Shown here piece after piece: positions 1 through 49,863 of a stretch of 49,863 nucleotides of DNA. The stretch is from Acidilobaceae archaeon (lineage in GTDB: Archaea > Thermoproteota > Thermoprotei_A > Sulfolobales > Acidilobaceae). The notes under the pieces are model-generated. The model saw only the letters and a list, made by a program, of their open reading frames with translations, was not told the origin of the DNA and searched no databases. The DNA is taken from NCBI GenBank assembly GCA_025058835.1, contig JANXEI010000003.1, forward strand, positions 1-49,863. Reading direction: 5' to 3'. Made by a program: the position numbers and the translations under genes. Each line of letters begins with the position of its first letter. Position 1 is the stretch's first letter.

Positions 1-29
1 ATAACAGCCGGGGCTCCATCAGCTCCCAT
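1..29. repeat. Left copy of a 29-bp repeat shared by both window ends
   Basis: Bases 1-29 are identical to 49832-49860. The match stops at base 30 (C here, G on the right), so this is not a clean circular overlap. On the minus strand the copy reads towards the left edge, the same orientation it has on the right where it lies just upstream of a CRISPR-like leader. A dispersed sequence such as a shared leader, at which an assembly broke, is the simplest reading. Confidence 0.85.
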
Positions 30-42
30 CAGAGCACTGAAG

Positions 43-57
43 CGAAAAGCTTAAATG
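43..57 (+). promoter_or_regulatory. BRE/TATA promoter upstream of the 84-118 hairpin
   Basis: A purine-rich BRE-like stretch (CGAAAAG) runs straight into CTTAAATG. This is the usual crenarchaeal layout and predicts a transcript starting near base 80. No good ORF begins there, so the product may be a structured RNA or a long leader. Confidence 0.5.
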
Positions 58-83
58 TATCCCGGAGTTTTCAGGGAAAGGCA

Positions 84-48250: not shown

Positions 48251-49567
48251 ATGAAGGACCTCTTGATCCGGGAAGTGCTGGCAAGAGGCCAGGAGCTGGA
48301 GGGGAAGGAGGTAGAGGCCTGCGGCTGGGTCCACAGGATCAGGGACCTGGGGGCCCTCCGCTTCCTGGTGCTGAGGGACAAGAGCGGCACGCTCCAGGCA
48401 GTCTTCAAGAGGGGGGAGACGCCGCAGGAGGTCTTGAGCAGGGCCCTGGAGCTGAGGGAGGAATCCGTTGTATGCGTGAAGGGGAGCCTGAGGAGAGCGC
48501 CGACCAGGGAGGGATACGAGATCTCTGCAAGGGATCTCCGCCTCCTCTCCGCGCCCGTGGAGCCCCTCCCCCTCGAGGTGCCCGACAGCCCCAAGGCCAC
48601 CCTGCCCACCAGGCTCAAGTACCGCTGGCTTGACGTGAGGAACCCCAAGGTCTCAGCCATATTCAAGCTCAAGGGCTGGATAGCAGGCAAGTTCAGGGAG
48701 CACTTCTCGAGCCTCCAGTTCACCGAGATCTTCACGCCCAAGATAGTGGCTACGGGCACAGAGAGCGGCGCAGACGTGTTCCCCGTGCTCTACTTCGGCA
48801 AGACTGTGTACTTAGCCCAGAGCCCCCAGTTCTACAAGCAAATGGCAGTCATAGCAGGCCTCGAGCGCGTCTTCGAGGTAGGCCCCGTCTTCAGGGCTGA
48901 GCCCCACCACACCGTGAGGCACCTCAACGAGTACCACTCGCTGGACATAGAGGTGGGCTTCATAGAGAGCTACAACGACGTGATGGACCTGGTGGAGGGG
49001 TTCTTCAGGAGGCTAGCGCAGGACCTCCACGAGGTGAGGGAGCTGCTGGAGGAGCACGGCGCCGAGCCCCTGCAAGTGCCAGAGAGGGTGCCCCGCCTGA
49101 CCATGAGGCAGGCCTACGAGGTGCTGGCAGAGTACGGCAAGAGGGTGCAGTACGGGGAGGACCTGGACCCAGAGGGGGAGAGGCTCCTGGGGAGCTATGC
49201 CAGGGAGAGGTACAAGTCCGACCTGATCTTCGTCACCGAGTACCCCTGGAAGGTGAGGCCCTTCTACACAATGAGGAAGGAGGAGGAGCCTGCCTGGACC
49301 TACGGCTTCGACCTGCTCATGAGGGGGCTGGAGGTGGTCACGGGCGGCCAGAGGGAGCACAGGTACGAGAGGCTGAGGCAGAACCTGAGGGAGAAGGGGC
49401 TGAGGGAGGAGGACTTCTCCTTCTACCTGGAGTTCTTCAAGCACGGCGCCCCTCCCCACGGCGGGGCAGGGATGGGGCTGGAGAGGATAACTATGCAAAT
49501 GCTGGGGCTCCAGAACATAAGGGAGGCAAGGCTCCTCCCGAGGGACACGGAGAGGGTTACGCCCTGA
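48251..49567 (+). CDS. aspS: Aspartyl-tRNA synthetase, archaeal type
   Basis: Class II synthetase, 438 residues, with the N-terminal OB fold (CGWVHRIRDLGALRFLVLRD), then motif 1, motif 2 (FRAEPHHTVRHLNEYHSLDIE) in two parts and motif 3 (GMGLERITMQML). His28 sits where discriminating archaeal enzymes have Trp (position 26 in T. kodakarensis), which fits a non-discriminating enzyme that also makes Asp-tRNA-Asn. That would need GatCAB elsewhere. ATG start. Confidence 0.96.
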   Translation: MKDLLIREVLARGQELEGKEVEACGWVHRIRDLGALRFLVLRDKSGTLQAVFKRGETPQEVLSRALELREESVVCVKGSLRRAPTREGYEISARDLRLLSAPVEPLPLEVPDSPKATLPTRLKYRWLDVRNPKVSAIFKLKGWIAGKFREHFSSLQFTEIFTPKIVATGTESGADVFPVLYFGKTVYLAQSPQFYKQMAVIAGLERVFEVGPVFRAEPHHTVRHLNEYHSLDIEVGFIESYNDVMDLVEGFFRRLAQDLHEVRELLEEHGAEPLQVPERVPRLTMRQAYEVLAEYGKRVQYGEDLDPEGERLLGSYARERYKSDLIFVTEYPWKVRPFYTMRKEEEPAWTYGFDLLMRGLEVVTGGQREHRYERLRQNLREKGLREEDFSFYLEFFKHGAPPHGGAGMGLERITMQMLGLQNIREARLLPRDTERVTP

Positions 49568-49573
49568 CTCTTT

Positions 49574-49728
49574 CTTTCAACTTCATGGGAGGGATTCGAA
49601 AGCAGAAGATCGTCATCGCGATGATATCACATTACTTTCTTTCAACTCCATGCACTGGATTCCCAGAGCATGAGGCGTTAAGGGCCTCTCAAAGGGCCTC
49701 TTGACTTTCAACTCCATGCGATGGATTC
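49574..49728 (-). CRISPR. CRISPR-like mini-array, three repeats
   Basis: Three 24-base repeats lie at 49574-49597, 49639-49662 and 49705-49728. On the minus strand they read GAATCC, a four-base variable stretch, then CATGGAGTTGAAAG (CATGAAGTTGAAAG in the first). The spacers are 41 and 42 bases and not alike. Repeat size, spacing and the GTTGAAAG end match crenarchaeal type I CRISPR. The array would be transcribed leftwards, towards aspS. The far repeat is the most degenerate, as is usual at an array end. No cas genes are in the window. Confidence 0.65.
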
Positions 49729-49831
49729 TGCACTCATGCGCCCATGGCCATGGCTGATGGATCTGGGCTAGATCTCGAGCTGATGGACTTTCCCTGCAAA
49801 AGCCGGGAAAAGAATATTTATGGCTATAAAC
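49729..49831 (-). promoter_or_regulatory. Probable CRISPR leader
   Basis: The 103 bases next to the right-most repeat are not coding. On the minus strand a TATA-like GCCATAAATATTC (49811-49823) lies about 85 bases before the first repeat. GCTGATGGA occurs twice on the plus strand (49753 and 49779) and once inverted at 49846. The layout suits a leader, but there is no proof of activity. Confidence 0.5.
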
Positions 49832-49860
49832 ATAACAGCCGGGGCTCCATCAGCTCCCAT
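49832..49860. repeat. Right copy of the 29-bp terminal repeat
   Basis: Identical to bases 1-29. It lies upstream of the probable leader promoter when read on the minus strand. The window ends three bases later. A sequence present at both ends suggests a multi-copy element, such as a leader carried by several CRISPR loci. Confidence 0.85.
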
Positions 49861-49863
49861 GAG

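What the first reader, a model, noticed from the sequence alone, without database searches (positions are those of the whole stretch)
49729..49863. Both ends of the window carry the same 29 bases, beside a CRISPR leader
Bases 1-29 equal 49832-49860, in the same orientation relative to leftward transcription. The match ends in a mismatch at base 30, so a circular overlap is not a clean explanation. If it is a shared leader, the array beyond base 1 would be a second CRISPR locus running left. The assembly may have stopped because that leader is repeated.
Basis: partly seen in the sequence, partly recalled or inferred. Interest (0 to 1): 0.6.

Follow-up and report, generated by a model that had tools for sequence, protein, structure and literature searches.

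The report
Repeated CRISPR leader at contig ends
The matching 29 bases at the two ends of this archaeal contig are pieces of a CRISPR leader that the genome carries in six places, so the assembly broke there; the same CRISPR sites are also where this chromosome has been rearranged relative to a sister species.

Summary
In detail: 31 of 32 end bases match, in the same orientation, and shuffles give none. The window is a complete contig (C23) of a 1.19-Mb archaeal draft genome, probably Acidilobaceae. Both ends lie in a ~265-nt CRISPR leader ("leader A") present at six places in the genome. The right end holds a 3-repeat array and a leader with an 82-nt internal deletion that removes its TATA-like box. 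The left end holds only the leader's distal 79 nt, so the array should lie left of base 1, unseen.

All six ends of the three large contigs lie in CRISPR leaders. Sister-species gene order joins C23's right end to C22's right end and C22's left end to C11's left end. A conserved Zn-ribbon–enolase neighbourhood plus elimination joins C23's left end to C11's right end. The result is one circular chromosome with three CRISPR gaps, not a 50-kb circle.

Beyond the finding: (1) leader copies evolve in concert (23 sites to 0); (2) every synteny break in about 416 kb of the sister is at a CRISPR site or is the other end of a rearrangement that has one end there; (3) cas1 and nearly all of cas2 are deleted, so the arrays look like relics. 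This is a new member of a known kind.

The parts
1..79 (-). Distal part of leader A; the part next to the array, and the array itself, would lie left of base 1 and are not assembled. Strand '-' = the array would be transcribed leftward
   Evidence: 94% identical to positions 187-265 of the complete 266-nt leader query
1..32 (.). Left copy of the shared 32 bases (29 exact, then one mismatch)
49832..49863 (.). Right copy of the shared 32 bases
49729..49863 (-). Leader A of the right-hand array, with an 82-nt internal deletion at about 49739/49740 (short GCCC match at the junction) that removes the TATA-like CTTAAATATT; the contig ends before the leader's last ~48 nt
   Evidence: alignment of all copies
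49705..49728 (-). CRISPR repeat next to the leader
49663..49704 (-). Spacer, 42 nt; no target among the sequences held
49639..49662 (-). CRISPR repeat
49598..49638 (-). Spacer, 41 nt; no target among the sequences held
49574..49597 (-). Degenerate terminal CRISPR repeat, 7 bases after the aspartyl-tRNA synthetase stop codon
317..1597 (+). Enolase, first gene after the left leader; its conserved divergent neighbour in relatives is the gene at the right end of contig C11
   Evidence: Pfam; neighbourhood
48251..49567 (+). Aspartyl-tRNA synthetase, last gene before the right array; synteny with sister G003 breaks immediately after it
   Evidence: Pfam; synteny

Best explanation
The 29 bases are a segment of leader A, a ~265-nt leader of type I-A-like CRISPR arrays, dispersed at six chromosomal sites in this archaeon. 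SHOWN: six copies of the same leader, four with arrays visible on the contig or in the sister species at the same site, and assembly breaks exactly at leaders. INFERRED from gene order: contig C23 is the chromosome segment between two CRISPR clusters, C11R-[CRISPR]-C23-[CRISPR]-C22R, with the third gap C22L-[CRISPR]-C11L, in one circular chromosome. How it works: in the sister species the leader carries a TATA-like box about 60 nt from the first repeat that should drive array transcription, its repeat-proximal end should be where Cas1-Cas2 insert spacers, and csa1-cas1-cas2-cas4-csa3 stand beside it. In this genome cas1 and nearly all of cas2 are deleted, two of the leaders have lost the TATA-like region, and visible arrays have 2-6 repeats. 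So the loci are probably relics that no longer take up spacers. The leader copies have kept exchanging sequence with one another (concerted evolution), and CRISPR sites are where the chromosome has been rearranged.
For: Six leader-A copies and leader B at both C11 ends. Repeats occur only beside leaders on C11, C22 and C23. G003 has the C22R and C22-internal leaders at the same gene positions with 121 and 69 repeats. C23R-C22R: G003:C48 runs from AspRS into C22:438159 and upward, while G003:C2 runs from the C22R leader through its array into C22:437983 and downward, which one inversion explains. C22L-C11L: G003:C11 reads C22:6000->4128 | DNA methylase gene | C22:232->4130 | C11:2516->. C11R-C23L: the Zn-ribbon gene at C11R is the divergent neighbour of enolase in G004, G024 and G032 (52-54% identity), and this is the only join left. 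Concerted evolution: 23 informative sites group copies within a genome, 0 group orthologs, 1 cross. cas1 and cas2: no PF01867 match in G000 against 8.7e-63 in G003 with controls ringing; the csa1|cas4 junction with a short cas2 remnant is inside a contig.
Against: The array left of base 1 is not in the assembly. C23R's distal leader is missing, and among the contig ends held only C23L could continue it (31/32 over 32 bases), which is what a circle would give. The C11R-C23L join rests on conserved neighbourhood and elimination; in G003 enolase is followed by an odd 690-bp piece that duplicates another locus. Interference cas genes were not searched for, so 'relic' is only supported for spacer uptake. 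The genome is a draft with 92.65% estimated completeness.
Confidence: 0.85

Rival explanations
1. The two ends are the same leader copy: C23 is a closed 49.8-kb circle (a minichromosome, or a chromosome segment excised between direct leader repeats), and the single mismatch is a contig-end error.
For: Of all contig ends held, only C23L is compatible with C23R; their 32-base overlap differs at 1 base, against 2-6 between most other pairs of copies. The ends are direct repeats, so excision by recombination is possible in principle.
Against: Two distinct copies, C22int and C22L, also differ at only 1 base here, so the match does not prove identity. Gene order ties C23R to C22R and C23L to C11R. 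The segment carries enolase, AspRS, Nop5 and a tRNA-Glu, and G003 has it inside a longer contig. A 32-base inexact overlap is not the usual signature of a circular contig.
Confidence: 0.08
2. The left leader fragment is a solo leader without any array (array lost), and the contig ended only because the leader is repeated.
For: Arrays in this genome are short and decaying, cas1-cas2 are gone, and two leaders already carry deletions.
Against: Both leader copies in G003 and every leader in G000 whose repeat-side junction is assembled (C22int, C11int, C23R, C11L, C11R) have at least two repeats.
Confidence: 0.15
3. Leader A with its array is a mobile unit that inserted at new sites, and the synteny breaks are insertion scars, not rearrangement endpoints.
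For: Four of six leader-A sites have no leader in G003, and at C11:579k the leader ends within 2 bases of flank homology.
Against: At C23R/C22R and C22L/C11L flanking DNA is inverted, not merely interrupted. No transposase or target-site duplication was seen. Shared leader identity is explained by concerted evolution.
Confidence: 0.2

Closest known systems
Multiple CRISPR loci sharing one leader in Sulfolobales (type I-A; review PMC4390879)
   Same: 24-25-nt repeats, 35-43-nt spacers, leaders conserved over about 230 bp, adaptation cassette regulated by csa3, exchange of spacer-repeat units between loci of one genome, and leaderless or leader-deleted loci that behave abnormally
   Different: Here the leader itself shows concerted evolution between species, cas1-cas2 are deleted, and visible arrays are very short
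CRISPR loci at inversion endpoints in Thermotogales (DeBoy et al. 2006, cited in PMC5052741)
   Same: CRISPR loci coincide with sites of inversion and other rearrangements between related genomes
   Different: An archaeon; only one end of each rearrangement is at a CRISPR locus, the partner end showing no leader or repeat
Methanocaldococcus jannaschii multi-copy long repeat plus short repeats (from memory, not checked)
   Same: Many small CRISPR arrays scattered in one genome, each next to a copy of the same long leader
   Different: Unrelated sequence and lineage; about 18-20 loci there against about eight here

Membership tests
CRISPR array with leader | Direct repeats of constant length separated by unique spacers | tested here: met
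   3 repeats of 24 nt with 41- and 42-nt spacers in the window; 2-6 repeats at other G000 loci; 121, 69 and 93 in G003
CRISPR array with leader | Leader directly adjoining the first repeat, shared among loci with the same repeat | tested here: met
   Leader A at six places in G000 and two in G003, always in the same orientation to the repeats where they are visible
CRISPR array with leader | Array seen left of window base 1 | not testable with these tools
   The contig ends inside the leader and no other contig carries the missing part
Type I-A CRISPR-Cas adaptation module | csa1, cas4 and csa3 present | tested here: met
   Pfam and PADLOC hits at about C22:481726-483766, next to the C22R leader
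Type I-A CRISPR-Cas adaptation module | cas1 and cas2 present | tested here: not met
   No PF01867 match in G000; cas1 and nearly all of cas2 missing between csa1 and cas4 inside a contig; present in G003. The module is therefore incomplete here
Type I-A CRISPR-Cas interference | cas3, cas5, cas7, csa5 and cas8a genes | not tested
   No genome searches left; none seen in the proteins scanned beside C22R
Circular 50-kb replicon | Ends join to each other | tested here: not met
   Indirect: gene order in G003, G004, G024 and G032 places other contigs at both ends; no reads available

The most novel reading that the evidence does not exclude
In a lineage that has lost cas1-cas2, dispersed CRISPR leaders persist and act as a chromosome-wide set of recombination sites: they convert one another and mark the places where inversions begin. 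They may be retained because their distal end is a promoter for the divergent neighbour gene.
Probability: 0.25. Interest if true: 0.6.

Novelty: new member of a known kind. Interest (0 to 1): 0.38.

Why it matters
It explains why this draft genome is in three large pieces and gives the likely order in which they close. It also adds an archaeal case in which CRISPR loci coincide with nearly every rearrangement found between two sister species, with clear concerted evolution of leaders and loss of the spacer-acquisition genes. That makes a testable system for the old question of whether CRISPR repeats and leaders promote rearrangement.

Tried and rejected
(1) A 17-kb deletion in G003 joining C11:588757 to enolase looked like direct proof of the C11R-C23L join. 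Rejected: G003:C47 carries that 17 kb intact (C11:605353->586954), and the last ~690 bp of G003:C48 are a second, more similar copy (87% against 79%), a duplication or chimera. (2) Exact search of genome contigs for the 29-mer found nothing. (3) The organism's name could not be read; the nearest titled enolase was an Acidilobaceae MAG at 63%. (4) The 451-bp piece inside the C22 array has no relatives in IMG/VR by its ORF and none in phage records. (5) Spacers of the G000 arrays hit nothing in the held sequences but themselves. Those contigs were chosen because they hold CRISPR-flanking genes, so the breakpoint association has an ascertainment bias.

Full report
OBSERVATION. Bases 1-29 of the window equal 49832-49860 on the same strand, and the match continues to 31 of 32 bases, the difference being C versus G at base 30. 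100 dinucleotide shuffles give no match even with three mismatches allowed. The window is the whole of contig C23 in a draft genome, G000, of 1,192,240 bases in 29 contigs. The 29-mer is therefore at two genuine assembly ends.

WHAT THE SEQUENCE IS. A search of the own genome with 49720-49863, then with the rest of the leader, found six copies of one leader ("leader A"): C23 right end, C23 left end, C22:1-225, C22:223233-223498 (complete), C22:483774-483999 on the other strand, and C11:579316-579482. CRISPR repeats (CTTTCAACTCCATGNNNNGGATTC) occur only on C11, C22 and C23, beside leaders. Both ends of C11 carry a second leader, "leader B". At C11's left end leader B lies between two divergent repeats. 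So all six ends of the three large contigs lie in or just past CRISPR leaders. The 26 small contigs contain no copy of either leader and no repeats.

ANATOMY IN THE WINDOW. Right end: AspRS stops at 49567. Repeats lie at 49574-49597 (degenerate), 49639-49662 and 49705-49728, with spacers of 41 and 42 nt; the leader starts at 49729. Aligned with the complete copy, this leader has lost 82 nt near its start, including the TATA-like CTTAAATATT at position 60; the junction shows a short GCCC match. The copy at C11:579k has a different deletion removing the same box. Left end: bases 1-79 are the distal end of leader A (positions 187-265), so a leader-proximal part and array are expected to the left. 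They are not in the assembly.

IS C23 A CIRCLE? The overlap alone cannot decide: C23L and C23R differ at 1 of 32 bases, but so do two other, certainly distinct copies (C22int and C22L). Gene order decides against a circle. The sister genome G003 (same genus) has the window collinear on contig C48 (C48:68803->19280 = window 234->49563), with no leader or repeat at either boundary. Past AspRS it continues into the genes at C22:438159 and upward; the 121-repeat array beside G003's version of the C22 right end continues into C22:437983 and downward. One inversion of C22:438,159-483,999 explains both, and requires that C23R and C22R were neighbours. In the same way G003:C11 reads C22:6000->4128, a DNA methylase gene, C22:232->4130, then C11:2516 onward: one 3.9-kb inversion, requiring C22L and C11L to be neighbours. 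The remaining join is C11R-C23L. The last gene of C11, a small Zn-ribbon protein (L039:2581-2868), is the divergent neighbour of enolase in G004, G024 and G032 (52-54% identity), and enolase is the first gene of C23. The three contigs thus close into one circle, C11-C23-C22(reversed), with a CRISPR cluster in each gap. These joins are inferences from synteny; no reads were available.

REARRANGEMENTS. About 416 kb of G003 (contigs C2, C11, C45, C47, C48) were compared with stretches of G000. Outside CRISPR sites the order is collinear over long runs: 90 kb around the conserved C22:223k array, about 130 kb of C22:4-134 kb, about 57 kb of C11:520-577 kb, and the window itself. Every break found is at a CRISPR locus of G000 or at the other end of a rearrangement that has one end at such a locus (C22:4128/4130; C22:437983/438159). 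The partner ends show no leader or repeat, so simple leader-by-leader recombination is not shown. The contigs were chosen for their CRISPR-flanking genes, so the association needs an unbiased whole-genome test.

CONCERTED EVOLUTION. Two leader-A loci are orthologous between G000 and G003. In the leader, 23 informative sites group the copies within a genome, 0 group the orthologs and 1 is crossed; identity is 92-93% within a genome and 84% between orthologs. The copies therefore have exchanged sequence within each genome.

CAS GENES AND LIKELY STATE. Beside C22R lie csa1, cas4 and csa3. In G003 cas1 and cas2 stand between csa1 and cas4. In G000 about 1.2 kb is missing at that point inside the contig, leaving only the last codons of cas2, and no Cas1 homologue is found in the genome while controls and G003 ring. 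Arrays visible in G000 have 2-6 repeats, against 121, 69 and 93 in G003. The natural reading is that spacer acquisition is lost and the loci are decaying. Whether interference works was not tested.

COMPARISON. Several CRISPR loci with one leader, and exchange between loci, are described for Sulfolobales (PMC4390879). CRISPR loci at inversion sites are described for Thermotogales (DeBoy et al. 2006, as cited in PMC5052741). The case is a new member of known kinds. Its combination of concerted leaders, breakpoints at nearly all CRISPR loci and loss of cas1-cas2 is worth a specialist's note but is not a new category.

Noticed in passing
L010:3541-3560 (G000:C22 about 482540): cas1 and nearly all of cas2 deleted between csa1 and cas4, with a short cas2 remnant; no Cas1 anywhere in the genome, while sister G003 has both.
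   Followed up: yes
L009:3760-4210 (G000:C22:222759-223209): A 451-bp 'spacer' inside the C22 array encodes a small ORF and a ribbon-helix-helix protein. It may be an assembly bridge through a virus matched by two spacers, or a true insertion.
   Followed up: partly
L038:594-2261 (G000:C11:594-2261): A 555-aa ORF of unknown family beside the C11 left-end CRISPR is absent at the same site in G003 and is matched (29/32) by a spacer of a G003 array; probably of mobile-element origin.
   Followed up: partly
L038:29-326 (G000:C11:29-326): Leader B lies between two divergently oriented CRISPR repeats and shares the CCAGAGCTTAAATATT promoter-like stretch with leader A: a possible two-way leader.
   Followed up: partly
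L210:3569-6457 (G003:C11): Where G000 has the C22L/C11L CRISPR cluster, G003 has a 962-aa N6 DNA methylase gene (possible restriction-modification enzyme): perhaps one defence gene in place of another.
   Followed up: partly
L008:180-230, L009:4452-4498, window 34-79: The distal end of every leader A is highly conserved, with a TATA-like CTTAAATGTA and an inverted copy of TTTCCCTG..CCGGGA; it abuts divergent genes (TatD, csa3, kinase-like), so it may be their promoter.
   Followed up: no
L103, last 690 bases (G003:C48:68827-69514): The end of this G003 contig duplicates part of C11:587.6-588.8 kb, closer to G000 (87%) than G003's own copy (79%): a duplication or an assembly chimera.
   Followed up: partly
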